From: Tychonema sp. LEGE 06208
GTDB lineage: Bacteria > Cyanobacteriota > Cyanobacteriia > Cyanobacteriales > Microcoleaceae
Direction: 5' to 3'
NCBI RefSeq assembly: GCF_015207505.1
Contig: NZ_JADEWT010000002.1
Coordinates: forward strand, 62,001-126,000
DNA length: 64,000 bases
Positions 10,640 to 26,146 of this stretch are shown here, one piece after another. Every line of letters begins with the position of its first letter. The first letter of the stretch is position 1. The notes under the pieces were generated by a model that saw only the letters and a program-made list of their open reading frames with translations, ran no database searches and was not told where the DNA came from. The position numbers were made by a program, and so were the translations under genes.

Positions 10640-13276
10640 GTGGCGCTTAATCTCAAAATTAGCCCCCACCTGTTTATCGTAAGCAGGAAAAAAACATTGG
10701 CAGTATTAACTGGTACATCCTCAAACGACAACCTGACAGGCACCCCAGATGATGACAACATCACAGGCTTAGAAGGCAACGACACCATCGCGGGCTTAGA
10801 CGGCAATGATACTTTGTCTGGCGGTGGAGGAGACGACAACCTCAGTGGAGGTGCGGGCAATGACTCCCTCCTTGGTGGCAGTGGCACTGGTAGCAGTGGC
10901 ACTGACACCATCGATGGCGGTGCGGGCAATGACTTTCTGAATGGTGGCGGTAGCCTGGCCGGCGGCGATGGAGACGACACCCTGTTCGACTCTGGGTTTA
11001 GCACGGTCGATGGCGGTGCGGGCAATGACTATCTCAGTGGTGGTTTTAATAGCACCTTAGAAGGCGGTGCGGGCGATGATACGCTCGCTGGATTTATCAG
11101 TGGGAGTGTGCTGCGAGGCGGTGCAGGTAACGATCGCTATTTGTTGCGGGCGAACGGGCAGAGTCAACTTCAAATTCAGGATACTGGCGGGAGCAATCGC
11201 CTAGACTTTACTGATTTTGACAGCGAGATCAACACCAGCACTGCGCTGTCGCTGTCGCTGTCATCGGGCACTTTGGGATTGAGCCGCCAAGGCACGAGTT
11301 TAGCCATCGACACCAACAAAGACGGCATCATCAGGGCTACCGATGACGTTGTGATTTTAGACTTTTTCGGCGCATCCCCAACTGTCGCGGGTGCTGGCTT
11401 CATTGAAACTGTGGGCAACCTCACTGGTGCCGATATTCTGGCTGCTAATCTCACTGAGGCTACGGCGGCACCCGGAACTAATGCGCTCACCGGAACACCA
11501 AACGATGACAACCTGACAGGCACCTCAGCCGATGACAACATCTCAGGCTTAGCAGGCAACGACACCATCGCGGGCTTAGAAGGCAACGATACTTTGCTAG
11601 GCGGTGATGGAAATGACAGCCTCAGTGGAGGTGGCGGAAATGATTCCCTGATTGGTGGCTTCAGTGGCACTGACACCCTTGATGGCGGTGCGGGCAATGA
11701 CTTTCTGAATGGTGGCGGTAGCCTGGCCGGCGGCGATGGAGACGACACCCTGTTCGACTCTGGGTTTAGCACGGTCGATGGCGGTGCGGGCAATGACTAT
11801 CTCAGTGGTGGTTTTAATAGCACCTTAGAAGGCGGTGCGGGCGATGATACGCTCGCTGGATTTAGCACTGGGAGTGTGCTGCGAGGCGGTGCAGGTAACG
11901 ATCGCTATTTGTTGCGGGCGAACGGGCAGAGTCAACTTCAAATTCAGGATACTGGCGGGAGCAATCGCTTAGACTTTGTGAATTTTAACGACGAGATCAG
12001 TACCAGCACTACGCTGTCGCTGTCGCCGTCATCGGGAAGTACAGGCTTGGGCCGACAAGGTACTAGCTTGCTGATCGACATCAACCAAGACGGAATCGCT
12101 GACCCTGCTAAGGACGTTGTGATTTTAGACTTCTTCGGTGCATCGCCGACTGTCCAAGGTGCTGGCTTCATCGAAACTGTGGGTAATTTATCGGGTGCCG
12201 ATATCCTGGCCGCGACAACCCCAACACCAGCGACGACGCCCACACCAGCGACAACCCCAACTCCAGCGACAACGCCCACACCAGCGACAACGCCCACACC
12301 AGCGACAACCCCAACTCCAGGGACAACGCCTATTCCTATTCCTATAAGACCAACACCGGCAGCCACACCAACACCGGGCACAAACACACCCACACCGGGC
12401 ACAAACACACCCACACCAACACCTCCACCTTTCACGCCCGCGACTGCACTGTCGATCGCACAGCCGATCGCACCCACATTCACCAACAGGCCCGCACCAA
12501 GCGAATTGCCACAGGTTTTGGGCACCAGCGGCAACGACGCGATCGGTGGTAGCGAAGCCAACAATATCTTGTATGGCAACGCTGGAAACGACACCGTGGG
12601 AGGCAATGGCGGCGACGACATCGTATTTGGCGGCAAAGGCGATGACGGCTTATTCGGCGATGTCGGCAACGACCTCTTGTTTGGCAACCTCGGCAACGAC
12701 ACCCTTGTCGGTGGCGACGGTGCAGATACCGCATTGGGCGGCAAATCTGACGATTTGATATTTGGCGGCGCTGGTAACGATGTCCTCGGCGGCGAACTCG
12801 GCAACAATACTTTACTCGGCGGCGAGGGTAGCGATACTCTGTACGGCGGTGAAAATAATGATGTCTTGTTTGGCGGTAGCGGCAACGATTTCCTCTACAG
12901 CACAAAAGGTAACGACATCTTGGTTGGTGTTGACTATACCGGTGCTAATCCCGGACGCGGCGAAGTCGATACGCTGATTGGCGCTGAAGGTAGCGATACT
13001 TTCTTGCTGGGAAATGCCACAGAGTTCTACTACAGCGACGGCATCGATAGCAGCACTGGCGCTGGCGACTACGCTTTGATTGTCGGCTACAACCCCAGTA
13101 ACGATATCATCCAACTTCAAGGCGCTCCCAGCACCTACAGGATCGGCGCTTCTCCGGCTGGATTGCCCGAGGGTGCTGCTATTTTCAAGAAGACTGGGGG
13201 TGCGGATGAGTTAATCGCGATCGTCCAACCTGTTTCTGGCTTTGGCCTTGACAGCAGTTCTTTGCGCTTTGTTTAA
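10640..13276 (+). CDS. RTX-type calcium-binding protein with duplicated module
   Basis: This 878-residue protein is built of nonapeptide GGxGxDxLx repeats that bind Ca2+ in a beta-roll. It is probably secreted or surface-exposed, as in related cyanobacterial S-layer or motility-associated proteins. Residues about 25-270 and 285-525 are near-identical modules, each made of RTX repeats plus a linker with an LVILDFFGASPTV-like segment. A Thr-Pro linker of TPTPAT units (about 530-600) follows. A third RTX block (about 635-770) and a C-terminal region with GSDTFLLGN and a DYALIVGYNPSNDIIQL motif close the protein. No signal peptide is visible, which fits type I secretion. The assigned GTG start is weak; a TTG at 10697 is an alternative. 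A terminator follows about 100 bp downstream. No enzymatic domain is recognisable. Confidence 0.9.
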   Translation: MALNLKISPHLFIVSRKKTLAVLTGTSSNDNLTGTPDDDNITGLEGNDTIAGLDGNDTLSGGGGDDNLSGGAGNDSLLGGSGTGSSGTDTIDGGAGNDFLNGGGSLAGGDGDDTLFDSGFSTVDGGAGNDYLSGGFNSTLEGGAGDDTLAGFISGSVLRGGAGNDRYLLRANGQSQLQIQDTGGSNRLDFTDFDSEINTSTALSLSLSSGTLGLSRQGTSLAIDTNKDGIIRATDDVVILDFFGASPTVAGAGFIETVGNLTGADILAANLTEATAAPGTNALTGTPNDDNLTGTSADDNISGLAGNDTIAGLEGNDTLLGGDGNDSLSGGGGNDSLIGGFSGTDTLDGGAGNDFLNGGGSLAGGDGDDTLFDSGFSTVDGGAGNDYLSGGFNSTLEGGAGDDTLAGFSTGSVLRGGAGNDRYLLRANGQSQLQIQDTGGSNRLDFVNFNDEISTSTTLSLSPSSGSTGLGRQGTSLLIDINQDGIADPAKDVVILDFFGASPTVQGAGFIETVGNLSGADILAATTPTPATTPTPATTPTPATTPTPATTPTPATTPTPGTTPIPIPIRPTPAATPTPGTNTPTPGTNTPTPTPPPFTPATALSIAQPIAPTFTNRPAPSELPQVLGTSGNDAIGGSEANNILYGNAGNDTVGGNGGDDIVFGGKGDDGLFGDVGNDLLFGNLGNDTLVGGDGADTALGGKSDDLIFGGAGNDVLGGELGNNTLLGGEGSDTLYGGENNDVLFGGSGNDFLYSTKGNDILVGVDYTGANPGRGEVDTLIGAEGSDTFLLGNATEFYYSDGIDSSTGAGDYALIVGYNPSNDIIQLQGAPSTYRIGASPAGLPEGAAIFKKTGGADELIAIVQPVSGFGLDSSSLRFV

Positions 13277-13617: not shown

Positions 13618-13671
13618 TTAACTGAATTTTCATAGTTCTATGAAAATTAATTAGTGCGATCGATTCAATTT

Positions 13672-14616
13672 ATGGCTAAATTCTTAACCGCTGCATTATA
13701 TAAGTTCGTTGAACTGTCGGATTTTGCCGACCTCAAAGCACCGCTACTCGATTGTTGCAACAACCACAACGTCAAAGGCACTATCTTGTTGGCTGCAGAA
13801 GGCATCAACGGGACGATCGCCGGTTCGTCAGAAGGCGTGCGCGCAGTCCTCGCATTCTTGCGCTGTGACGCGCGTTTTGCTGATTTGGTTCACAAAGAAT
13901 CTTTTTCCGAAAAAGCCCCGTTTTACCGCCTAAAAATCCGCTTAAAACGCGAAATCGTCACGATGGGAATACCTGATATTAATCCATCTCTCATGGCTGG
14001 CAAATATGTCAAACCCGATGAGTGGAATCAGCTACTTGACGATCCTGATGTGGTGGTAGTTGATGTACGCAACGACTTCGAGGTATCTATGGGTACTTTT
14101 GCAGGCGCTATTAATCCCAAAACAAAAAGCTTTTCCGAGTTACCTGAATGGGCGCTCAAAGAAGCTGCTTTGCGCGAAAAACCCAAGGTAGCAATGTTTT
14201 GCACTGGCGGTATTCGCTGCGAAAAATCTACTGCTTTTTTGCGCTCTCAAGGTTTTGAAGAAGTCTATCACCTCGAAGGCGGAATTTTAAAATATTTGGA
14301 AACGGTGCCCGCAGCAGAAAGTCGTTGGGAAGGTGAATGTTTTGTCTTTGATGAACGGGTTTCTGTTGTTCATGAATTAAAACCTGGTAACTACGAACTT
14401 TGTCGCGGTTGTCGTCACCCCATTAGTCAGGAAGATAAAGCTTCTGAATTATTTGTAGTTGGTGTAAGTTGTCCTCATTGTCATGACTCGAAAACTGAAA
14501 CCAAAAAACAAGCCTTATTTGAGCGGCAGCGTCAGATTGAGCTTGCTAAAAGCCGCAATCAAACACATATTGGCGCGCGCTATGATGTTAAGGAAAAAGT
14601 TGATAATGGGATATAG
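13672..14616 (+). CDS. trhO: tRNA uridine(34) hydroxylase TrhO (rhodanese-like, UPF0176)
   Basis: TrhO makes 5-hydroxyuridine at position 34 of certain tRNAs using O2, the first step of cmo5U/mo5U formation. The 314-residue protein has the family layout: an N-terminal acylphosphatase-like UPF0176 domain (about 1-95), a rhodanese domain (about 110-215) with the catalytic-cysteine loop MFCTGGIRCEKS, and a C-terminal Cys-rich segment (CRGCRHPIS...CPHC). The frame could open 18 bp upstream at a GTG, but the ATG at 13672 starts the usual MAKFLTAALYKF sequence. The gene lies 54 bp after tRNA-Gly. Its TAG stop falls in the first bases of a family B repeat, so the extreme C-terminus may have been altered by that insertion. 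Confidence 0.93.
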   Translation: MAKFLTAALYKFVELSDFADLKAPLLDCCNNHNVKGTILLAAEGINGTIAGSSEGVRAVLAFLRCDARFADLVHKESFSEKAPFYRLKIRLKREIVTMGIPDINPSLMAGKYVKPDEWNQLLDDPDVVVVDVRNDFEVSMGTFAGAINPKTKSFSELPEWALKEAALREKPKVAMFCTGGIRCEKSTAFLRSQGFEEVYHLEGGILKYLETVPAAESRWEGECFVFDERVSVVHELKPGNYELCRGCRHPISQEDKASELFVVGVSCPHCHDSKTETKKQALFERQRQIELAKSRNQTHIGARYDVKEKVDNGI

Positions 14617-14960: not shown

Positions 14961-15147
14961 ACTAATGACTAATGACTAATGACTAATGACTAATGACTAC
15001 TGACTAATGACTAATGACTAATGACTACTGACTACTGACTACTGACTACTGACTACTGACTACTGACTACTGACTACTGACTACTGACTAATGACTACTG
15101 ACTACTGACTACTGACTACTGACTACTGACTAATGACTACTGACTAC
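14961..15147. repeat. GACTAAT/GACTACT heptamer array reaching into the next gene
   Basis: About 27 heptamers end at the fifth codon of the GST-like gene. The array carries the ATG that opens that gene's frame. Upstream ATG copies in the array are followed quickly by TGA. Confidence 0.9.
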
Positions 15148-15789
15148 CCAATTTTGTATTCTTTCCGCCGCTGTCCCTATGCTATGCGCGCGCGCTTGGC
15201 GCTAATGATTAGCAATCGGGTGTGCGAGTTGCGGGAAGTTGTTTTGCGAGACAAGCCACAAGAAATGTTAGATGTATCGCCCAAGGGTACTGTACCGATA
15301 TTGATTGATGTTGACGGGCGGGTACTGGATGAAAGTATTGATATCATGTTGTGGGCCTTAGAACAATACGATCCTGAAAAATGGTTAATTCCAGAACAAG
15401 GTACTGTTGCAGAAATGCTAGCACTAATTGCTGAATTTGATAGTGGCTTTAAATATCATCTCGACCGTTATAAATACCCGGAACGTTATGCTGGTGTTGA
15501 GGCTAGAGTACATCGAGATAAAGCTGCTTTGTTTCTGGAAAAACTCAATGCAAAGTTAAACGCGACTAAATATTTGTATGGTAATAATGTAGCATTGGCC
15601 GATCGCGCGATCGCACCTTTTGTTCGTCAATTCGCTCATACCGATAAAAATTGGTTCAACGAACAGCCTTGGTATCAGCTAGAAGCTTGGTTAGCCGCCT
15701 TTACAGACTCGGAAATCTACGCTAGTATTATGCACAAATACCCGAAATGGGAATCTGGCAATGCCGGGGTTGTTTTTGGGCGATCGTAA
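15133..15789 (+). CDS. Glutathione S-transferase-like protein
   Basis: This 218-residue cytosolic protein has an N-terminal thioredoxin-like GST domain (about 1-78) with LYSFRRCPYAMRARLAL, the cis-proline loop KGTVPIL and the DES glutathione-binding triad (LDESIDI). A helical GST_C domain follows (about 90-205). The CPYA site, a cysteine instead of Tyr/Ser, points to an omega/glutaredoxin-2-like thiol-transferase activity rather than classical conjugation; this is inference. The start codon and the first five residues (MTTDY) come from the upstream heptamer array. No other start lies before the conserved region, so the native N-terminus was probably replaced by repeat sequence. No Shine-Dalgarno is visible. 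Confidence 0.88.
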   Translation: MTTDYPILYSFRRCPYAMRARLALMISNRVCELREVVLRDKPQEMLDVSPKGTVPILIDVDGRVLDESIDIMLWALEQYDPEKWLIPEQGTVAEMLALIAEFDSGFKYHLDRYKYPERYAGVEARVHRDKAALFLEKLNAKLNATKYLYGNNVALADRAIAPFVRQFAHTDKNWFNEQPWYQLEAWLAAFTDSEIYASIMHKYPKWESGNAGVVFGRS

Positions 15790-15927: not shown

Positions 15928-18900
15928 ATGATTGATGTTGGTTCGTTAGTTCGATCGCCCAAAAACGATTTGGGAATCGGAAAAGTTGTCGAGGTATCGT
16001 CTACCGATGCCGTAATTGAATATTTTTGCTCAGTAAAAAACCGCTTCCGCAAAACTATAGCGTTGGGTTTGCTACAAGAAGCTAGACTTCAGCGACAAAC
16101 CCGCTGCTACCTCTGGAGTAACACTCAGGAAAGGTGGATAATCGGGCGAATTTATGATTGGGATGAAGATAAATTAGAATACGAAATTGACCTCCCCGAC
16201 AGCCAAAGTTTGCAAGCTGTCGAAACCGAACTTTACGTCCGCTGCAATATCCCGATCGCCGATCCGATCGATATTTTAGCAGTCAAAGGCCAAGAAACAC
16301 CGTATTTTCACGATCGCCGATTGGCATTTGTGCAATCGGCGATCGAACAGCGCGCCGTCAGCCGCGGCATGACCGGATTAATTTCTGCTAACATAGAGCT
16401 CTACCCGCACCAAGTTGAAGTCGTCCGGCGCGTCCTAGAAGACCCGATCGTGCGCTATTTGTTAGCAGACGAAACAGGACTAGGGAAAACCGTAGAAGCC
16501 GGGACAATTCTCCGCCAATTCCTACTCGACGATCCCGACGGACGCGCTGTAGTGCTCGTTCCCAAATATTTGCTCGAACAGTGGCGACAAGAGTTAGAAA
16601 ATAAATTCTATTTGTCTCATTTTGCTGACCGAGTGCAGCTTGTTGCTATTAGCGAAATCAATCAAATTAGCCGCAACGCCAACCTGGATTTTCTGATTGT
16701 GGATGAAGCGCAGGAACTGGCCGCAATGGCTAATTCGGGCGATCGCAATCAGCAACAATCCTTTGAACTATGCCAGCAACTCGCTCAAAAAAGCAATAAC
16801 TTATTGTTATTATCTGCAACGCCAGTTATCGGTCGCGAGCAAGATTTTCTGACCATGCTGCACTTGCTAGACTCGACTACTTACCGTCTAGATGACCTCG
16901 AAAATTTCAAAGAAAGAGTGCAGAACCGTCAGGAAATCGGTCGCGCCTTGCTAGATTTTAGAGAAACAGCCAAGCCTGCTGTTTTGCAAACAAAAATCGC
17001 TCAACTCCGCACTCTGTTTGCGAAAGATGATTATTTGCTCGGATTGATCGACGAGTTAGAAACTTGTTTGAAAACCGCAGAAACTGCCGAACAATCTCGC
17101 CTTGTCCAAACTATTCGCACTCACGTTAGCAATACCTACCGCCTCCACCGCCGCATTCTCCGCAACCGCCGGGATGCGGTGGAAGATGTGATTTTCGATC
17201 GCGATTGTGTGCCCAAAACCGAGTACGATCTCAATGACGAACAGTGGTCGGAAATTCAAAGCGTATTCGATAAATGGCGCGCTGCTGCTCCCAAATCCAG
17301 CGAATATCAGAGAATTTTTCTGCTGTTTTTCCGCGCTTCGGGTACTTGGTTGAATGTTTTGGAACGGGTTGTCAAAGCTCGCTTGCAGAAAAAATCGACT
17401 CCTGAACTCGATCGCGAATTCGGACAAAGCGACACCGCAATTTTGACCAAAACAGCGCTGTTTCCCGAAGAAAAGGAAATGCTGGAAACCTTGCTCAATA
17501 GCCTGCAAAAGCCCCAGGAAGGACTCGACAGATTGAGTTTGTTACGAATTGCTATTTTGCGATTTTTGGCAGTTGCTTTGAAGGTTCCGCGCGAGTATCA
17601 CAACAATTCTCGCGATTTGCTATCGAGAATTCAACAGCAAATTAAACGGCCGATTCCGGGCGAACGTTTCCCGAAAATTGTGATTTTTACCAGTTTTACG
17701 GCAACTTGTCAAGAAATTGCGGAAAACTTAGCTAAAATATTTGGTAAAAAGGCGATCGCCAGCCACGACACCGGCAAGTCTGGGGATGATGTTGAGGCTA
17801 GTCTCCATCGGTTTAAGACTGAGCCGCATTGTTTTATCTTAGTGTGCGATCGATCGGCAGAAACAGGCGTAAACCTGCAAATAACCGATTGGTTAATTCA
17901 CTTCGATTTACCGTGGTTTCCCAACCAGCTAGAACAAAGACTCGGCAGAGTCGATCGCATTGGTAGCAAAATGGGAGTACAATTTTGTTTGTTTGCAGGC
18001 CCGGATCTGCCAGAAAGTCCCCACGAAGCTTGGTTTCAAGTCTTAAAAGACGGCTTCGATATCTTCAACAAATCGATCGCCAGCCTTCAGTTTTATGCCG
18101 AACAAAAACAGCTAGAACTTGAAGCAAAGTTGTTTGCTGAGGGAGCAAAGGGCTTGTCAAGCGAAATTGAATCAATCAAAAATCAAATCGCCCAAGAGAA
18201 AACCAAAATCGACGAACAGTACGTTCTCGATGAAATTGACACTCTAGAAGACAGCGCATCTCAGTATTTTGAATCTCTCGAAAACTGCGACGACCGCCAT
18301 AAAGAAATGCAGCGGGCGACGGAAGGTTGGCTTTGTCAAGCTCTCCACTTCAAACAAATCGAACATCCGACAGTATCAGGGTTGATGCGCTATCAACCCA
18401 CTCAAAAAACCTTGATTCCTTCAAACGATTTGAGAACTCGATTGATTCCTTATTGTCAGCAGTACGGTAGTTACAATCGCCGCATTGCTCATCAAAATAA
18501 CGATGTAGTTCTTTACCGCATTGGAGAAGGATTGATCGATGCGCTTGGCTCTTACATTCGCTGGGACGATCGGGGTCAAGCTTTTGCGATGTGGCGGCAC
18601 GATCAAAGTTGGGATGCTGCGGAAGGGATGGAGTGGTTCGGCTTCCAATTTAATTATTCTATCCAGACTGATGTGGAACCTGCAGCTCTAGTTTTGCAAG
18701 CACAAAGCATCGAAAATTACAACTTGAAAGCTTTGCAGCGGCGCGCTGATGCTCTGTTTATCCCAACTTTTGAAACTGTGTTTGTAGACGCTCGCAGCGA
18801 GCAGATGTCTCTGGTGGAAGATGCGGAAGTTCTGCAGATTTTGCAGCGGGGTTATAAAGGCAAAGGCGGCCCGAATCGGGATTATAATTTGTCTAAAAAT

Positions 18901-19263
18901 CGTACTTCGCTGATTGACAGTTTTGTCGATCCGTTGGAATGGGATGATTTTTGCCAAAAAAGCCGGGTGGTATCCGAGGAATTGCTGCGAGGGCGCGAGG
19001 CTTTTGTGGAAATGTGCAATAATTCTGCTGTCAGTGCTGCAATCCAACTCAAAAACCGGGTGAATCAATTGCAATTGCGATTGAATCGACTTTCTAAATC
19101 CGAACAACTTTTAGAATCGGTTTTAGGTGATGAAATCAGTACCGAAAGTGCGTTGAGTGAAGCGGTTTTAGCGGGAATTCGCCGCCCGCAGATGACCCTT
19201 GAGTCGGTGGGATTTATTGTGATTTCTGGGCGCGCGCCTGTTAAGGAGAAGGAAGAAGGATAG
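15928..19263 (+). CDS. Large SNF2/RapA-family helicase, DpdE-like
   Basis: This is a 1111-residue superfamily 2 ATPase. The N-terminal 150 residues are beta-rich and SH3/Tudor-like, as in RapA. The helicase core shows Walker A ADETGLGKTVEAG (near residue 181), Walker B VDEAQ (near 258), motif III LLLSATPV (near 296) and motif VI LEQRLGRVDRIG (near 670). A coiled-coil region (about 730-790) and a long C-terminal domain follow. Size and layout match DpdE, the SNF2-like protein of the dpd system that inserts 7-deazaguanine into DNA. This assignment rests on memory of the family, not on a search. None of the other dpd genes (dpdA, B, C and so on) is in the window, so it is an orphan here. A role in DNA protection, or a RapA-like role in transcription, are the two readings. 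It appears monocistronic. Confidence 0.85.
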   Translation: MIDVGSLVRSPKNDLGIGKVVEVSSTDAVIEYFCSVKNRFRKTIALGLLQEARLQRQTRCYLWSNTQERWIIGRIYDWDEDKLEYEIDLPDSQSLQAVETELYVRCNIPIADPIDILAVKGQETPYFHDRRLAFVQSAIEQRAVSRGMTGLISANIELYPHQVEVVRRVLEDPIVRYLLADETGLGKTVEAGTILRQFLLDDPDGRAVVLVPKYLLEQWRQELENKFYLSHFADRVQLVAISEINQISRNANLDFLIVDEAQELAAMANSGDRNQQQSFELCQQLAQKSNNLLLLSATPVIGREQDFLTMLHLLDSTTYRLDDLENFKERVQNRQEIGRALLDFRETAKPAVLQTKIAQLRTLFAKDDYLLGLIDELETCLKTAETAEQSRLVQTIRTHVSNTYRLHRRILRNRRDAVEDVIFDRDCVPKTEYDLNDEQWSEIQSVFDKWRAAAPKSSEYQRIFLLFFRASGTWLNVLERVVKARLQKKSTPELDREFGQSDTAILTKTALFPEEKEMLETLLNSLQKPQEGLDRLSLLRIAILRFLAVALKVPREYHNNSRDLLSRIQQQIKRPIPGERFPKIVIFTSFTATCQEIAENLAKIFGKKAIASHDTGKSGDDVEASLHRFKTEPHCFILVCDRSAETGVNLQITDWLIHFDLPWFPNQLEQRLGRVDRIGSKMGVQFCLFAGPDLPESPHEAWFQVLKDGFDIFNKSIASLQFYAEQKQLELEAKLFAEGAKGLSSEIESIKNQIAQEKTKIDEQYVLDEIDTLEDSASQYFESLENCDDRHKEMQRATEGWLCQALHFKQIEHPTVSGLMRYQPTQKTLIPSNDLRTRLIPYCQQYGSYNRRIAHQNNDVVLYRIGEGLIDALGSYIRWDDRGQAFAMWRHDQSWDAAEGMEWFGFQFNYSIQTDVEPAALVLQAQSIENYNLKALQRRADALFIPTFETVFVDARSEQMSLVEDAEVLQILQRGYKGKGGPNRDYNLSKNRTSLIDSFVDPLEWDDFCQKSRVVSEELLRGREAFVEMCNNSAVSAAIQLKNRVNQLQLRLNRLSKSEQLLESVLGDEISTESALSEAVLAGIRRPQMTLESVGFIVISGRAPVKEKEEG

Positions 19264-20167: not shown

Positions 20168-21361
20168 CTAAACATCCTCAAAAATCGCTCCCCCCTGCTG
20201 TAAATTCAACTTCACATCCTCCGCAAGTCCTGAGTTATTCCCAAACCTTGCTGACTCGACATTCGTACCGCTGAAATTAGTATTTGTTAAGTTCACTTCG
20301 AGCAAATTGGCGCGGCTCAAATCGGCACCGCTGAGGTTTGCTAAAGCCAGACTGGCGCGGTACAAATCGGCGCGGCTCAAATCGGCATTTCCTAAGAAAG
20401 CGCCGCTCAAATCTGCACCGCCGAATTTGGCATTTTGCAGGTTGGCATCGCTGAAATCGGCATCGCTGAGGTTTGCACCTCGGAAGTTTGTTCCCTGGAG
20501 CTTTGCACTGCTAAAATCAACTGTATTCAAAGTAGTTCCGCGCAAGTTAGCGCCCGCGAAATCTCGTGCTGGATTGAGATTGGCGATTTTTGCCAACTCT
20601 GTAAAATTGTCGGTTTCAGCAGAGATGATGCGATCGACCATTTCTTGCAATTTAGCTTCAGCTTCCGGGAAAATTTCCACCTCGGGCTGTTCCACCGCAG
20701 GCAAATTGTAGGACAATAGCGCCCAACTCAGAGCAGGTTGGAGTTTATTTGCTTGCAAATATATAGTCAAGATTCTTTCTAAAACCGAATGTTGATTTGG
20801 CGTAATATCGTGGGGCCACAAACCCTCCGCATCTGTGATATAAATATCTTCTTTGGCCACTTCAAAAGTCGCAGCAATTCGCAATGGTTGGGCTGTCAAT
20901 TCTGCTATTCTAACACTTTTTAGCAAACCTTTTAATACAGAATCAGCGCGCTCCAATGCAAAAATCCAAGTAGGCGTTGTATCGTCGCCTAGGGTGGAAA
21001 CGTGACACAAAGTGCCAGGATTTTCTTTGGTTTTTTCCGCAGTTTCGCTTTCTAGAACTACCGCGGGACTTTCCGTAAATAAAACTTGCGTGCTGCTTTG
21101 AATTGGCGACAGCATGAAATCACCGACTAACTGACGCGATGCTACGGGAATTTCGCAGTTTTCCAGATTGAGCTTGAGGGTTCCGCTTTGCAAGCCAAAT
21201 TTGACGCGACCGCCTAGCAGGGGTTCCCAATGTTCGTTAAAATTGAGGCTCAAGTGAATGTGGAGCTGCTCGGTTTGGGCTGCAAGGGAGCGCACGGGAA
21301 TTGCTTCTAATTGCATCCACAAACAATCTGGATATTTGTTGTGAGACTCTAGCGATCGCAT
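20168..21361 (-). CDS. Pentapeptide-repeat protein with a large N-terminal domain
   Basis: The first 250 or so residues of this 397-residue protein form a mixed alpha/beta region that I do not recognise. A linker with ELAKIANLNPARDFAGANL leads into about 23 pentapeptides of the A(D/N)LXX type (about 270-375), predicted to form a right-handed square beta-helix. The C-terminal tail GLAEDVKLNLQQGGAIFEDV (20 residues) resembles the end of the protein encoded at 22825-23991. The two genes therefore share a linker-repeat-tail module. It is likely cytosolic. Some pentapeptide proteins mimic DNA and protect gyrase, but most cyanobacterial ones have no known role. Upstream (21362-21489) is a short AT-rich spacer. 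Confidence 0.88.
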   Translation of the reverse strand: MRSLESHNKYPDCLWMQLEAIPVRSLAAQTEQLHIHLSLNFNEHWEPLLGGRVKFGLQSGTLKLNLENCEIPVASRQLVGDFMLSPIQSSTQVLFTESPAVVLESETAEKTKENPGTLCHVSTLGDDTTPTWIFALERADSVLKGLLKSVRIAELTAQPLRIAATFEVAKEDIYITDAEGLWPHDITPNQHSVLERILTIYLQANKLQPALSWALLSYNLPAVEQPEVEIFPEAEAKLQEMVDRIISAETDNFTELAKIANLNPARDFAGANLRGTTLNTVDFSSAKLQGTNFRGANLSDADFSDANLQNAKFGGADLSGAFLGNADLSRADLYRASLALANLSGADLSRANLLEVNLTNTNFSGTNVESARFGNNSGLAEDVKLNLQQGGAIFEDV

Positions 21362-21489
21362 ATCGGGAAAAGTGCTGGCTCTGCCAGATTGTAATTGATA
21401 TTTAAATTAGTTTATCATCTCTAATCGATCGCAACACAGATTTTTCTCGCGGGTTTAAATTGTAAATTTTGTTTGATTCGATCGGCAAG

Positions 21490-22128
21490 TCATTGGTTTG
21501 CCTGAATTTGGCTTTTTACCCAAGTCCGAAATGCTTTAATTAATTCCAAATAATCCATTGTTTCTGCTTGTTCCAAAAATCTCACTATCTCTAATATCGG
21601 CAAGCTGGGAAATGCTAAACTGATCTCGCAATCAACGTATTCTCCATTTTCAAATCTGTTGATTCTGAGCCGCGTTCCATTATAAATCCAAACTTCCGGC
21701 ACTCCCAAATCCGCATAAACCTGCAAGCTATTTTCCGAACGGCTGGTAATATCAATTTCCACCACTAAATCCGGTGGCGGATCTCGATCCATGTCGATTC
21801 TTTTTTTGCCTTTAATTGCACTCAGATTTTGGATGTAAAAACATTTATCCGGTTCTGCACCGCTAAGTTCAGGACGCTTAAATGTGGTAGAACCAAGAGG
21901 TTCAATTTTTACATCTAATTCTTCAGCTAAGATCTCCACAAATCGACCCAATACTTCTTTGAAACGTTCGTGCTCTGGGGATGGTACCATAATTTCAAGA
22001 TTGCCGCGATTGTATGTCAGTCGAATTTGCCGATCGCCAATTTCGGCAAGCAAATTTTCGTAGGTTTGCCAACTGATACCCGATAGCTGGACAATTTGTT
22101 GGGGCGGGGCGAGAGTTTGAGCGGTCAT
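21490..22128 (-). CDS. Uma2 family (PF05685) putative endonuclease
   Basis: This protein of about 212 residues has a PD-(D/E)XK-like fold. It has the family hallmarks YNRGNLEIMVPSPEHE, PDLVVEIDITSRS and YADLGVPEVWIYNG. The frame opens 63 bp upstream, but the ATG at 22128 begins the usual MTAQTL sequence, so I chose that. The lysine normally seen after VVE is not obvious, so nuclease activity is doubtful. Uma2 proteins are hugely expanded in filamentous cyanobacteria and their biological role is unknown. A second Uma2 gene lies 81 bp upstream on the same strand. Confidence 0.88.
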   Translation of the reverse strand: MTAQTLAPPQQIVQLSGISWQTYENLLAEIGDRQIRLTYNRGNLEIMVPSPEHERFKEVLGRFVEILAEELDVKIEPLGSTTFKRPELSGAEPDKCFYIQNLSAIKGKKRIDMDRDPPPDLVVEIDITSRSENSLQVYADLGVPEVWIYNGTRLRINRFENGEYVDCEISLAFPSLPILEIVRFLEQAETMDYLELIKAFRTWVKSQIQANQ

Positions 22129-22209
22129 AGTGCTACTTTGGTGAAGAGTTCGCAGGCGCAAGCTAAGGAAGCAGCCATCGCACTTTTGCATTATATCATC
22201 GCAGGAAGC

Positions 22210-22785
22210 CTAGCCGGGAAATACCGCAGATAAATCCAGAGACAACTCTGGAAAACCGGGAATTACCACAAACTCATTCGGTAAAACCACTCGTTTGACT
22301 CGATAATCGAAACTACCTGTTTGTTTCTGATAAGGTTCGCTGTAGGTTTCCAGTTGAATATCTACCAAATTAAATATCCAATAATCAGAAATTCCCGATT
22401 CAGCGTAGAGAGATAGCTTAGTTCTGCGATCGTACTTCAAAGTCGAATCAGAAACCTCAACCACCAACAAAATATCAGCACTTTTTGGGTGAGAAGATAA
22501 ATAATTATCAGAACAATTTCGAGCAATCACCATATCAGGTTCCGGTTCGCTATCATCAGACAAGATAATCGGTTCTTGACCGCGCACGCAGGCACTTTTT
22601 GCCATCATCAGGCACAACTCTCCCAGAAATAGCGAGTTACAAGCCGAGTGAAACGTAGTTTTTTTAGCTTTTTTAATAATTTCTCCGCGAATCAATTCAA
22701 ATCGGTTATCAGACTCAAAAAAACCCAGTTCTGCCAAACGGTGATATTCGGCGATGGAGAATCGTTTTGCAGTTACGGCATTCAT
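22210..22785 (-). CDS. Uma2 family (PF05685) putative endonuclease
   Basis: This 191-residue protein carries the PD-(D/E)XK-like core: FELIRGEIIKKA near the N-terminus, EPEPDMVI, then ADILLVVEVSDSTLKYDRRTK with the catalytic Asp/Glu/Lys pattern (VVEVSDS, then K about 12 residues on) and YAESGISDYWIFN. Here the lysine is present, unlike the neighbouring paralogue. Sequence identity between the two neighbours looks low, so they are not a recent duplication. It starts 39 bp after the TPR-pentapeptide gene and is probably transcribed with it. Function is unknown. Confidence 0.88.
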   Translation of the reverse strand: MNAVTAKRFSIAEYHRLAELGFFESDNRFELIRGEIIKKAKKTTFHSACNSLFLGELCLMMAKSACVRGQEPIILSDDSEPEPDMVIARNCSDNYLSSHPKSADILLVVEVSDSTLKYDRRTKLSLYAESGISDYWIFNLVDIQLETYSEPYQKQTGSFDYRVKRVVLPNEFVVIPGFPELSLDLSAVFPG

Positions 22786-22824
22786 AGCTTTTAATTACCC
22801 TCTACAATTACCAACATTCCCATT

Positions 22825-23991
22825 TTACTCGAAAATTCCGCCCCTGGTTCTCAACTCAACTTTCACGGCTTCCGAAAGCCCCAAACAACCAGAAAACCTC
22901 GTGTTTTTTACTACCGCATTTTTTAATTCAGCGCGGCTCAAATCCGCACCTTTTAAATCAGCACCGCTCAAATCTACGCCGCTCAAATCAGAATTTTTTA
23001 AATTAGCATCAGTTAAATTTGCATTTACTAAAATCGCATTCGGTAAATAAGCGCTGCTCAAATTAGCGCCGACTAAATTTGCACCGCTCAAATTCGCCCT
23101 AGGTAGCTTTGTCCGCAAATCTGCACGGCTTAAATTCGCGCTGCTGAGTTCAGCATCCCGCAAATTAGCATTGCACAAATTAGCATCAATTAAAAGTGCA
23201 GCGCTCAGCAATGCACCGCTGAGATCCGCTAAGGTTAAATCTGCGCCTTGGAGGTTGGTTTCGCGCAAATCCGCGCCGTTCAAATCAGCGTAGTGGAAGT
23301 CAAAACCGCTTAAATCAGCTCCGGCAAAATCCTCGATGGGATTCAAACCAACTGTTTCTGCAAGTTGTAGAAAACTCTTATTTTTATCGGTTAAAAACAG
23401 TGCGCGCACGATCGCCAATTGCTGCTGTCGGTACTCGTCGGCTTTCTCGTAATTTGCTAAATACTTGTAAGCAATCTTCAAATTCTTGAGAGCGCTGCGC
23501 TCAACGCGATCGTCGCTGTGGGCGCGCGCGATCGACAACTGCTGCTGATAACATTCGATCGCACCAGGTAAATCGCCATTAGCATCACAAGCCAGCGCCC
23601 AATTTTCCAAAGCTTCCAACTCAGATCGAAAGTCGTCCGTTTCCCGCGCGATCGCCAAACGCTGTTTCTGGTAATCAATAGCACCCAAAAAATCTGAGCA
23701 AGCACAGCAAGCATTCCCCAAATTTCCCAAAGCATTCGCCTCGCCCCGGCGATCGCCAATTTCCCGCGCCAACACCAAATGCTGCTGGTAACAGTCGATC
23801 GCCCGATCGTAATTCAAGAGCGCTTCGTAAGCTACGCCCATATTACCGAGCGCCGCACCCGATCGCCGCTTATCGTCAATTTCCCGATACAGCGCCAGCG
23901 CTTCCTGCCAAGAATCCAGCGCCGCCTCAAATTGGCGCGCCTGATACTGCGAAATCCCCTGCTTGATTAACTCGCTAGCTTGTTCGCTCAT
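22825..23991 (-). CDS. TPR and pentapeptide-repeat protein
   Basis: The N-terminal half of this 388-residue protein (about 1-200) holds five TPR units, as in ALGNMGVAYEALLNYDRAI and NALGNLGNACCACSDFLGAI. A linker (LAETVGLNPIEDFAGADLSG, about 210-229) follows, then about 29 pentapeptides (about 222-368) and a short tail ending GGIFE. The TPR part suggests protein-protein contacts; the pentapeptide part forms a beta-helix. Linker and tail resemble those in the gene at 20168-21361. No signal peptide or membrane segment is visible, so it is likely cytosolic. Cellular role is unknown. Confidence 0.9.
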   Translation of the reverse strand: MSEQASELIKQGISQYQARQFEAALDSWQEALALYREIDDKRRSGAALGNMGVAYEALLNYDRAIDCYQQHLVLAREIGDRRGEANALGNLGNACCACSDFLGAIDYQKQRLAIARETDDFRSELEALENWALACDANGDLPGAIECYQQQLSIARAHSDDRVERSALKNLKIAYKYLANYEKADEYRQQQLAIVRALFLTDKNKSFLQLAETVGLNPIEDFAGADLSGFDFHYADLNGADLRETNLQGADLTLADLSGALLSAALLIDANLCNANLRDAELSSANLSRADLRTKLPRANLSGANLVGANLSSAYLPNAILVNANLTDANLKNSDLSGVDLSGADLKGADLSRAELKNAVVKNTRFSGCLGLSEAVKVELRTRGGIFE

Positions 23992-24014
23992 ATAGCAATC
24001 CTAAATGATTTTCT

Positions 24015-24043
24015 GTAGGGACACGGCAGTGCCGTGTCCCTAC
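24015..24043. repeat. Inverted repeat GTAGGGACACGGC / GCCGTGTCCCTAC
   Basis: A 29-bp near-perfect palindrome lies just upstream of the TPR-pentapeptide gene start. This is a dispersed cyanobacterial hairpin repeat. Confidence 0.75.
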
Positions 24044-24087
24044 TCAAATTGATATTAATCTACTTGAAGCGTTCCACAGTTGACAGT

Positions 24088-24150
24088 TGGCCCGAATTTA
24101 CTCGTTACCAGGCTCTGCCTGGTAATGCAGATCCAGAGGCTCTGCCTCTA
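24088..24150. repeat. Partial family C repeat (GTTACCAGG core)
   Basis: Contains CTCGTTACCAGGCTCTGCCT, then GGTAATGCAGATCC and GAGGCTCTGCCTC. The inverted ends of the full element are absent. Confidence 0.7.
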
Positions 24151-24236
24151 TTTACCCAGGGTTTCTCAAAACAGAGCGATCATTTAATTTATTAAATTTT
24201 CGTTCCTTAAACCAATTTTTTACCATAACAAAAAAG

Positions 24237-24358
24237 GTTCGCACTCCCGACTTGGCTATTGGGCCGGAAAACCTATGCAAGTCCGCACTACAAACGAGCT
24301 GTCCTGACTTGGCTATTGGAGCGGAAAGCGTATGCAAGTCCGCACTACAAACGAGTTA
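24237..24358. repeat. Tandem duplication of a GACTTGGCTATTGG unit
   Basis: Two copies of about 50 bp (from 24249 and 24306, 57 bp apart) share GACTTGGCTATTGG, GCGGAAA and ATGCAAGTCCGCACTACAAA. Short open frames here are by-products of the repeat. The rest of 23992-24649 has no gene that I can support. Confidence 0.75.
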
Positions 24359-24411
24359 TACATCCCCGATCGCCAAAAAAGATCAAAAAAATCAAAAAAG
24401 ACAAAAAAGAC

Positions 24412-24443
24412 AAAAAAAGAGAGAGTTACCTAAGTAACTCTCT
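24412..24443 (-). terminator. Rho-independent terminator on the minus strand
   Basis: Read on the minus strand, AGAGAGTTAC / GTAACTCTCT form a perfect 10-bp stem with a 4-nt loop, followed by seven T and further T-rich sequence. It lies about 205 bp after the gatB stop and should end the gatB transcript, or a small RNA between them. Confidence 0.85.
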
Positions 24444-24649
24444 CTGCCATCAGGGTGCATCTACGTAACACAATATAACATTATCAGGATGAGGGGTGAC
24501 ACCCCCAAAGGTGAAGATATGGTAAAAGAATGTGTATTAATTATAAAGTTATCATGCAGCGGGATCGGCGATCGCGCGGCGGGATCGGGAAAAACCGATC
24601 GCCCTGCGCGCGCGTCCGCTACACAATCCCCTTAACGGCGGCCTTGACT

Positions 24650-26146
24650 TCAGCCGTTAAGCTTGGTCGCAAGCAACTCATTAGTCAATTTCGGATCGGC
24701 CCGGCCGCCCGTTTCCTTCATCACCTTACCGACAAAAAAGCCCAACAGCTTAGTTTTACCAGCCCGGTACTGTTCGAGCTCCTTGGGATTGGCGGCCAAC
24801 ACTGCATCGATCGCCCGATCGATCGCCCCAGTATCCGAAATTTGAATCAAACCCTTACTCTCAACCAACTTAGTCGGCGAACCGCCGTTTGCTAGCAACT
24901 CCGGCAAAATATCCTTAGCAATTTTGCCGCTGATCGTGCCAGCATCAATTAGCGCCAGCAGTTCGGTCAAATCCTGCGGTTGAAAAGGAATTTCTGCGAT
25001 CGCCAGTTTCTCATTTTTCAGATAAGCAGTAATATCGCCCATCACCCAATTAGCAGCTTGTTTAGCAACAGCACCGGCGGCGATCGTTTTTTCAAAATAC
25101 TCCGCCACCGCTTTGTCGTCAGTCAAAACCCGCGCGTCGTAGGGAGAAAGACCTAATTGAGTTTCGTAGCGGTGCCGCTTTTGGGCCGGCAATTCCGGCA
25201 GTTGAGCTTTCCAATCCTGCAATTGCTCCGCTGAAACTTCGATCGGAGGCAAATCCGGTTCCGGGAAATACCGATAATCGCTCGCACCTTCCTTAATCCG
25301 CATACTGAAAGTACACTGCTTGTTTTCATCCCAAAGCCGCGTTTCTTGGATGATAGTTTCGCCATTTTCGATAGCTTGAGTTTGCCGCTCAATCTCGTAA
25401 TCGATCGCCCGTTCGATCGCATTAAAAGAGTTCATATTTTTAATTTCGACCTTGGTGCCGAACTCTTTTCTCCCAACCGGGCGCACCGAAATATTCACAT
25501 CGCAGCGGAGCGAACCTTCCTGCATATTCCCGTCGCCGACACCGATATAACGCACGATCCGGCGCAATTCTTGACCGTATTCGGCAGCTTCCGCGCCCGA
25601 TCGCAAATCCGGTTCCGAAACAATTTCGATTAGAGGCACACCGGCCCGGTTGTAATCCACCATTGAATAGGTAGAACCGCTGAGCCGATCGCTGCCGCCG
25701 TGAACCAATTTGCCTGCATCTTCCTCCATGTGCAACCGAGTAATTCCGATTTTTTTTCTAGTAGAATTGCCCGCCTCGTCCACCAGTTCAATTTCTATCG
25801 AACCGTTAGTAGCGATCGGCAAATCGAACTGAGAAATTTGATAATTTTTCGGCAAATCGGGATAGAAATATTGCTTGCGGTCAAACTTACTGTAAGGTGC
25901 AATTTCGCAGTTGAGAGCCAGACCAGCTTTCACCGCATACTCCAACACTTTTTGATTTAATACTGGCAATACTCCCGGCATTCCCATACAAATTGGGTCA
26001 ATATTAGTATTTGGGGCATTGCCAAATTCTGTAGAAGAACTGGAGAAAATCTTAGTATTCGTGCTCAATTGACAGTGAGTTTCGAGACCGATAATGGCTT
26101 CGTACTGAGTTTGGTTTTTTATCGAAGAGGGTGCAGCAGCAGTCAT
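24650..26146 (-). CDS. gatB: Asp-tRNA(Asn)/Glu-tRNA(Gln) amidotransferase subunit B
   Basis: GatB is the tRNA-binding and kinase subunit of GatCAB, which converts Glu-tRNA(Gln) and Asp-tRNA(Asn) to the amidated forms in bacteria lacking GlnRS/AsnRS. The 498-residue protein has normal length and signatures: GLETHCQL near residue 21, [18 protein letters not shown] (about 89-106), [10 protein letters not shown], and the C-terminal YqeY-like tail domain from about 330 ([23 protein letters not shown]...GGRADP). gatA and gatC are not in the window. The ATG at 26146 gives the short N-terminal extension seen in cyanobacteria. It is probably monocistronic, ending at the terminator near 24430. Confidence 0.97.

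What the first reader, a model, noticed from the sequence alone, without database searches (positions are those of the whole stretch)
15928..19263. Orphan DpdE-like helicase
The protein has the size and motifs of the SNF2-like protein of the dpd DNA-modification system, but neither dpdA nor any other dpd gene is near. It may be a solitary relic, part of a dispersed system, or a related helicase family with its own role in defence.
Basis: partly seen in the sequence, partly recalled or inferred. Interest (0 to 1): 0.5.

Follow-up and report, generated by a model that had tools for sequence, protein, structure and literature searches.

The report
Stand-alone DpdE motor protein gene
A motor protein normally found as one part of a bacterial DNA-marking defence system has, in these cyanobacteria, been left on its own and kept intact as an ordinary chromosomal gene, which suggests it has a job outside that system that still has to be tested.

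Summary
The ORF at 15928-19263 is real and is a true DpdE: NCBIfam DpdE 1036 bits full length (cut-off 500), against 168 for RapA. No dpd gene lies near it and it is not in a defence island. It is not a relic. In its genus (Microcoleus/Tychonema) 28 of 29 genomes carry DpdE, DpdA is absent from all 29, the neighbourhood is conserved, and dN/dS is 0.16, like the tRNA enzyme gene nearby. The genome also holds a separate dpdEFGHI operon without dpdA, with its own dpdE 57% identical. Across related cyanobacteria DpdE occurs in full clusters with dpdA, in dpdA-less dpdEFGHI sets, and alone. Orphans arose several times; two sister pairs catch the loss of dpdF-I with dpdE kept. The AlphaFold model matches E. 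coli RapA over its whole length, including the N-terminal domain with which RapA touches RNA polymerase. I read it as a DpdE that outlived the dpd system and works alone as a RapA-type DNA or RNA-polymerase-clearing translocase. Family and history are well supported; the task is inferred.

The parts
15928..19263 (+). orphan dpdE gene, 1111 aa
   Evidence: NCBIfam NF041062 1036 bits, cut-off 500, full profile; intact frame
15928..16248 (+). N-terminal double beta-barrel (residues 1-107), like the RapA NTD
   Evidence: AF2 of residues 1-150 (mean pLDDT 83.2); best VIA-align match RapA NTD 8t0l_F, Z 9.9, 98 residues, rmsd 3.3
16360..18252 (+). SNF2 ATPase core (about residues 145-775)
   Evidence: aligned region of SNF2 structures in VIA-align; Pfam SNF2-rel_dom and Helicase_C
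16477..16491 (+). Walker A, GLGKT (residues 184-188)
16702..16713 (+). Walker B / motif II, DEAQ (residues 259-262)
17929..17964 (+). motif VI, LEQRLGRVDRIG (residues 668-679), arginines intact
18253..19260 (+). C-terminal part (residues 776-1111), aligned with RapA to residue 1102-1103; among the other listed SNF2 rows only Mot1 reaches into it (to 1051)
15133..15789 (+). GST-fold gene just upstream (138 bp gap), next to dpdE in most but not all genus loci; not an obligate partner
   Evidence: Pfam GST_N_3; found near full length in 16 of 25 loci compared
13654..14616 (+). trhO (tRNA U34 hydroxylase), part of the conserved neighbourhood
   Evidence: NF001133 321 bits, cut-off 170; synteny
20168..26146 (-). 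conserved downstream block: pentapeptide-repeat protein, two Uma2-like genes, TPR-pentapeptide protein, gatB

Best explanation
This is a DpdE that has outlived the dpd restriction-modification system and is now a vertically inherited, stand-alone gene of the genus. Shown here: it belongs to the DpdE family; no DpdA, DpdB or DpdD was found in its genome; it is a near-universal gene of the genus in a conserved neighbourhood and evolves under purifying selection; orphaning of DpdE has happened several times in related cyanobacteria; its predicted fold is RapA-like from end to end. Inferred mechanism: an ATP-driven double-strand-DNA translocase whose N-terminal double barrel gates the motor and recruits it to a partner, most likely RNA polymerase as in RapA, so that it clears stalled or non-productively bound polymerase (or another roadblock) from DNA without reading any base modification.
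For: Family. No DpdA over cut-off in any of 29 genus genomes; no DpdB and no DpdD in its own genome. Neighbourhood conserved. Selection: median dN/dS 0.158 over 300 pairs of 25 sequences, against TrhO 0.143, GatB 0.097, GST 0.226, and 0.245 for the cluster-type DpdE of the same genus, 6 sequences. Distances track neighbouring genes: Mantel r 0.85 GatB, 0.81 TrhO. One clade of genus orphans, support 100. Natural losses of dpdF-I with dpdE kept: G206 against G045, where 18 codons of dpdF remain, and L177 against L182. Fold: RapA is the only solved structure listed that aligns over nearly the whole length (8spg Z 24.5, rmsd 9.1, 813 residues; most other SNF2 rows about 145-775); NTD alone: RapA first, Z 9.9, rmsd 3.3, 98 residues. 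Positions conserved in clustered DpdE are kept best in residues 1-150 of the genus orphans, 99-100%. RapA's NTD (1-109) contacts the RNAP zinc-binding domain and restrains the ATPase (PMC8666675, passages). No RapA over cut-off in any of 14 genomes.
Against: Clustered and orphan DpdE align end to end, so the RapA-like fold is presumably shared by the whole family and does not by itself point to RNA polymerase or to a new role. RapA's lead over single Tudor domains is about 1 Z unit, close to a tie. No contact residues were tested. In the genus orphans motif III has drifted (SAT kept in 16 of 26 non-redundant sequences) and motif V is AETG or similar instead of GEEG, so coupling may be altered. 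One genus genome (G001, 99% complete) does without it and one (G295) has a frameshift, so it is not essential. Some orphans elsewhere have lost catalytic residues, so the motor is not always what is kept. The Mantel controls are linked genes, so they do not exclude joint transfer.
Confidence: 0.5

Rival explanations
1. A solo defence protein: the orphan DpdE still scans incoming DNA as a translocase and acts with host nucleases or by displacing phage replication or transcription complexes, without 7-deazaguanine marking.
For: Most close PADLOC names besides DpdE are defence helicases (HmaA, BrxH, DrmD). Orphan dpdE also sits on cyanobacterial plasmids, one of them next to a CyRepA1 replication gene. 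Across the order it is patchy, 35 of 291 genomes, as defence genes are.
Against: In the genus it is near-universal, in a neighbourhood of housekeeping and signalling genes with a single weak PADLOC match, a cyclase domain, among 10 proteins tried. dN/dS is lower than for the clustered dpd genes. No neighbour gene family is shared to any extent by the Microcoleus and Nostoc orphans.
Confidence: 0.28
2. Part of a dispersed dpd system: the orphan works in trans with the dpdFGHI products encoded elsewhere in the genome.
For: The window genome has dpdEFGHI on C168. In G166 the cluster's dpdE and dpdF are fused by an in-frame deletion while G, H and I stay open and the orphan is intact.
Against: 21 of the 28 DpdE-bearing genus genomes show no sign of the set; 6 of the other 7 have a cluster dpdE of their own. 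The two DpdE are 57% identical and fall in separate clades. No DpdA in any of the 29.
Confidence: 0.1
3. A relic that has not yet decayed.
For: The two natural-deletion orphans (G045, L182) are young, and some orphans (L187, L188, L191, L192, G028) have lost catalytic residues. G295 has a frameshift.
Against: Genus-wide retention, 1111 codons open, dN/dS 0.158, catalytic residues invariant in the genus.
Confidence: 0.05
4. DpdE was an independent chromosomal gene first and was recruited into dpd clusters later, so orphans are the ancestral state.
For: The root of the DpdE tree is not resolved; outgroup branches are about 3 changes per site.
Against: The annotated non-cyanobacterial DpdE looked at (Deinococcus) sits in a full cluster, and two sister pairs show the direction cluster to orphan.
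Confidence: 0.07

Closest known systems
DpdE of the dpd 7-deazaguanine DNA modification-restriction system
   Same: Same protein family end to end (NF041062 1036 bits); 47-59% identical to eight DpdE of cyanobacterial clusters with or without dpdA
   Different: No dpd genes around it, no DpdA, DpdB or DpdD found in the genome; near-universal in a genus; 24 positions conserved in clustered DpdE are fixed to another residue here
RapA (E. coli RNA polymerase recycling SNF2 ATPase)
   Same: Predicted fold over nearly the whole length including the N-terminal double barrel
   Different: Sequence score 168 bits, far below RapA's cut-off 576; RNA polymerase binding unknown
DrmD (DISARM SNF2-like helicase)
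   Same: SNF2 helicase of a defence system, matched over the motor
   Different: 166 bits against a cut-off of 610; no DISARM genes among the neighbours scanned

Membership tests
DpdE (NCBIfam NF041062) | Score over the curated cut-off across the whole profile | tested here: met
   1036 bits, 1-1048 of 1048, cut-off 500
DpdE (NCBIfam NF041062) | Intact SNF2 ATPase motifs | tested here: met
   GLGKT, DEAQ, SATP, QRLGRVDRIG
dpd system (as a locus) | Neighbouring dpd genes | tested here: not met
   none among the larger ORFs flanking it in the window
dpd system (as a locus) | DpdA transglycosylase in the genome | tested here: not met
   best 21.7 bits, cut-off 200; genome rated 100% complete, 232 contigs
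dpd system (as a locus) | DpdB and DpdD in the genome | tested here: not met
   DpdB 0 matches; DpdD 0 matches in G000. DpdD is also missing from two of the four DpdA-bearing genomes tried
dpd system (as a locus) | 7-deazaguanine derivatives in DNA | not testable with these tools
   precursor gene queC is present, but that also serves queuosine (recalled)
RapA | Score over the RapA cut-off | tested here: not met
   167.8 bits, cut-off 576
RapA | RapA fold over the whole length with its N-terminal domain | tested here: met
   Z 24.5, rmsd 9.1 over 813 residues; NTD Z 9.9, rmsd 3.3 over 98 residues; predicted models
RapA | Binds RNA polymerase core, ATPase stimulated by it | not testable with these tools
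   needs biochemistry
DISARM DrmD | Score over the DrmD cut-off | tested here: not met
   165.8 bits, cut-off 610

The most novel reading that the evidence does not exclude
Cyanobacteria have repeatedly turned the motor of a DNA-modification defence system into a housekeeping, RapA-type RNA polymerase or DNA-clearing factor, filling a role for which they have no RapA; and the DpdE family as a whole works on RNA polymerase, so that dpd restriction itself may act on transcription of foreign DNA.
Probability: 0.25. Interest if true: 0.78.

Novelty: new variant of a known kind. Interest (0 to 1): 0.55.

Why it matters
The function of DpdE was not described in any of the paper passages I read. A DpdE that is kept without the rest isolates one part of the system and makes its activity testable, for instance in laboratory Nostoc strains. 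The dpdA-less dpdEFGHI sets pose a sharp question of their own: a restriction set with no known self-mark either uses another mark, recognises something other than missing 7-deazaguanine, or is on its way out. A census that requires dpdA and dpdB, such as GATOR-GC (PMC11888242, passages read), cannot see either class.

Tried and rejected
Rejected: RapA or DrmD membership by sequence; defence island; a partner gene shared between Microcoleus and Nostoc orphans (no good candidate); an obligate GST partner (not found near full length beside dpdE in 9 of 25 loci compared, some of them cut by contig ends). Searched for dpd scars within 4 kb of the orphans: no hit to the other dpd genes but one that looks like chance (G035, E 0.028, opposite strand). 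That search also missed the 18-codon dpdF remnant at G045 that I later saw in the translated junction, so short scars can escape it. A direct test downstream of the window gene found none (score 30, 29 of 200 shuffles as high), while the G045 remnant scored 73 with 0 of 200.

Not settled: the root of the DpdE tree; the empty site in G001, because the query was a repeat protein that hit everywhere. Of the literature searches none listed a paper that by title or abstract start concerns orphan DpdE or dpdA-less dpd sets; one key dpd paper that I asked for is not held, so absence from print is not shown. The named-genome scan kept the best 80 of 125 relatives, so its 68 orphans of 80 are not a frequency. 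In the tree and the table some genomes appear twice, once under a G handle and once under a name.

Full report
WHAT IS THERE. The + strand ORF 15928-19263 encodes 1111 aa without a stop. It matches NCBIfam DpdE over the whole profile at 1036 bits (cut-off 500); RapA gets 168 (cut-off 576), DrmD 166 (cut-off 610). PADLOC agrees, DpdE E 2.4e-231. The ATPase motifs are present: GLGKT, DEAQ, SATP, QRLGRVDRIG. The neighbours are trhO, a GST-fold gene, pentapeptide-repeat and TPR proteins, two genes I call Uma2-like from memory, and gatB; further out are a HlyD-type protein, an AcrB-type transporter, histidine kinases, a GGDEF-EAL protein, a GH57 branching enzyme and an adenylate or guanylate cyclase. 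PADLOC gave one match among 10 window proteins tried, to a cyclase domain. It is not a defence island.

THE REST OF THE GENOME. The genome has 6.55 Mb in 232 contigs. DpdE over cut-off occurs twice: the window gene and one on C168. On C168 the second dpdE heads an operon with dpdF (982 bits), dpdG (143), dpdH (922) and a dpdI-like gene (58 bits, under its cut-off of 150). The two DpdE are 57% identical. DpdA has no match over cut-off, best 21.7 bits; DpdB none; DpdD none. The preQ0 gene queC is present, so the precursor route is probably there but the enzyme that would place it in DNA was not found.

THE GENUS. Named near-identical loci are Microcoleus, Tychonema and relatives. Of 29 genus genomes 28 have DpdE; G001 has none. 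Contig ends cut the gene in G293, G294 and G302, and G295 has a frameshift. The block trhO-GST-dpdE-pentapeptide-Uma2-TPR-gatB is conserved, with losses of single members, in the genus orphan loci examined that are long enough to show it. DpdA is over cut-off in 0 of 29. DpdH is over cut-off in 5 of the 29 (G000, G166, G273, G288, G293); G298 has one split over two contigs and G300 a clustered E-F pair at a contig end. That leaves 21 of 28 DpdE-bearing genomes with the orphan and no sign of DpdA, DpdH or a second DpdE. Two of these, G033 and G260, are single-contig genomes.

SELECTION. Over 300 pairs of 25 genus orphan sequences the median dN/dS is 0.158, against trhO 0.143, gatB 0.097, GST 0.226, penta1 0.247, TPR-pentapeptide 0.218, Uma2-like 0.320. 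The cluster-type genes of the same genus, 4-6 sequences each, give E 0.245, F 0.309, G 0.280, H 0.279, I 0.449. DpdE distances correlate with those of four neighbours, Mantel r 0.72-0.96, 0 of 2000 permutations as high; these are linked genes, so joint transfer is not excluded. Walker A K and T, motif II D and E, and the motif VI arginines are invariant in the genus orphans (44 of 44 rows, some genomes twice). Motif III is looser: SAT in 16 of 26 non-redundant sequences.

THE WIDER PICTURE. In an order sample 35 of 291 genomes have DpdE, in a phylum sample 26 of 386, 25 of them in the same order. Of the 48 DpdE-bearing genomes I followed (28 of the genus, 20 others), DpdA is over cut-off in 5 and DpdH in 17; 31 have neither over cut-off (30 without G298, whose DpdH is split). 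Three architectures appear. Full: a DpdA with a DUF6884 front end, a 274-289 aa gene without a family, then E-F-G-H-I and, in three loci, a DpdJ-like start. DpdA-less: E-F-G-H-I alone. Orphan: E alone. Among the 80 named loci kept of 125, 68 show no other dpd gene in the DNA held, 43 of these with more than 5 kb on both sides; 8 are EFGHI (two of them with a J start), 1 is E-F at a contig end, 3 are full. The orphan label needs at least 6 changes over well-supported branches in one tree and 8 in another, so it is not one event. The genus orphans are one clade (25 rows, support 100); the genus cluster-type DpdE are another (6 rows, support 100).

HOW ORPHANS AND SHORT SETS AROSE. Upstream of the dpdA-less sets of G288, G300, G293 and G273 lies the last stretch of the 274-aa gene, still ending at its stop (E 5e-9 to 1e-6; text), also seen in G166: these sets come from a cluster that had that gene, and so most likely dpdA as well. 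The upstream DNA of the window genome's own set shows no such stretch. In G166 the set's E and F are fused by an in-frame deletion (E 23-285 to F 280-849) while G, H and I remain. G206 (EFGHI) and G045 (orphan) are sisters at the same site: 88% identical through dpdE; in G045 the first 18 codons of dpdF remain, F to I are gone, and an ORF with a weak reverse-transcriptase match stands there before the flank resumes. L177 (EFGHIJ, Dulcicalothrix) and L182 (orphan, Calothrix PCC 7716) are 97% identical through dpdE and part company just before dpdF. No scar was found beside the window gene.

HOW IT MAY WORK. The AlphaFold2 model has mean pLDDT 85.8 and pTM 0.77. Foldseek ranks five RapA entries first. 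VIA-align places RapA over model residues 112-1102 (8spg, Z 24.5, 813 aligned, rmsd 9.1), 38-1103 (6bog) and 14-1097 (4s20), while most other SNF2 rows cover about 145-775. The N-terminal 150 residues folded alone give RapA's N-terminal domain first (8t0l_F, residues 1-107 on 2-107, Z 9.9, rmsd 3.3), ahead of single Tudor-type domains at 8-9; the lead is small. In E. coli that domain contacts the RNA polymerase zinc-binding domain and its removal raises ATPase activity fivefold (PMC8666675, passages). It is also the part where the genus orphans keep cluster-conserved positions best, 99-100%. So the step from fold to 'RapA-like translocase gated by its N-terminal domain' is a reasonable inference; the step to RNA polymerase as partner is weaker; the biological role is open. 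No RapA over cut-off was found in 14 of these genomes.

AGAINST. G001 does without it. The same fold is expected of clustered DpdE, so the fold does not separate a new role from the old one. A few orphans elsewhere have changed catalytic residues. Plasmid-borne orphans fit a mobile or defence-like past as well. Literature coverage is partial: GATOR-GC (PMC11888242), the YprA preprint (PMC12458937), the BREX paper (PMC12839542) and the Hachiman preprint (PMC10925250) were read only in passages.

Noticed in passing
L106:4326-15010 (contig C168 of the window's genome): A dpdE-F-G-H-I operon without dpdA, dpdB or dpdD: a restriction set with no known self-mark, also seen in other Microcoleus, Nostocales and Chlorogloea loci.
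   Followed up: partly
L107:1837-1917, L199:8712-8792 and upstream of dpdE in L070, L105, L075: C-terminal scar of the unnamed 274-aa dpd gene just upstream of dpdA-less dpdE sets, ending at the same stop.
   Followed up: yes
L199:8913-11279 (G166): In-frame deletion fuses the front of the cluster dpdE to the back of dpdF, while dpdG, H and I stay open.
   Followed up: partly
L084:7730-8554 and homologues: A 274-289 aa gene between dpdA and dpdE of cyanobacterial full clusters that matches no NCBIfam or Pfam family at the thresholds used.
   Followed up: no
L203:8670-15306 (Trichormus variabilis ATCC 29413 plasmid A): Orphan dpdE directly downstream of the plasmid replication gene CyRepA1.
   Followed up: no
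L187, L188, L191, L192 and G028 (L101): Orphan DpdE with altered motif VI arginines, three of the five also with DQA in motif II: probably ATPase-impaired, yet full length.
   Followed up: no
L102:8349-11045 and L103:1173-3788: Cluster DpdE that lack the first 234 profile positions, Walker A included, in decaying dpd loci; G278 also has a full-length orphan elsewhere.
   Followed up: no
20 of 49 non-Microcoleus orphan loci (family 2); L085:12487-12903: A 138-aa gene lies upstream of dpdE on the other strand; the 138-aa gene placed like this in L085 carries an RF-1 domain. That both are one family was not checked.
   Followed up: no
window 10640-13276: Repeat-rich protein with glycine/aspartate repeats and a long threonine-proline run; its first two parts repeat each other.
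   Followed up: no
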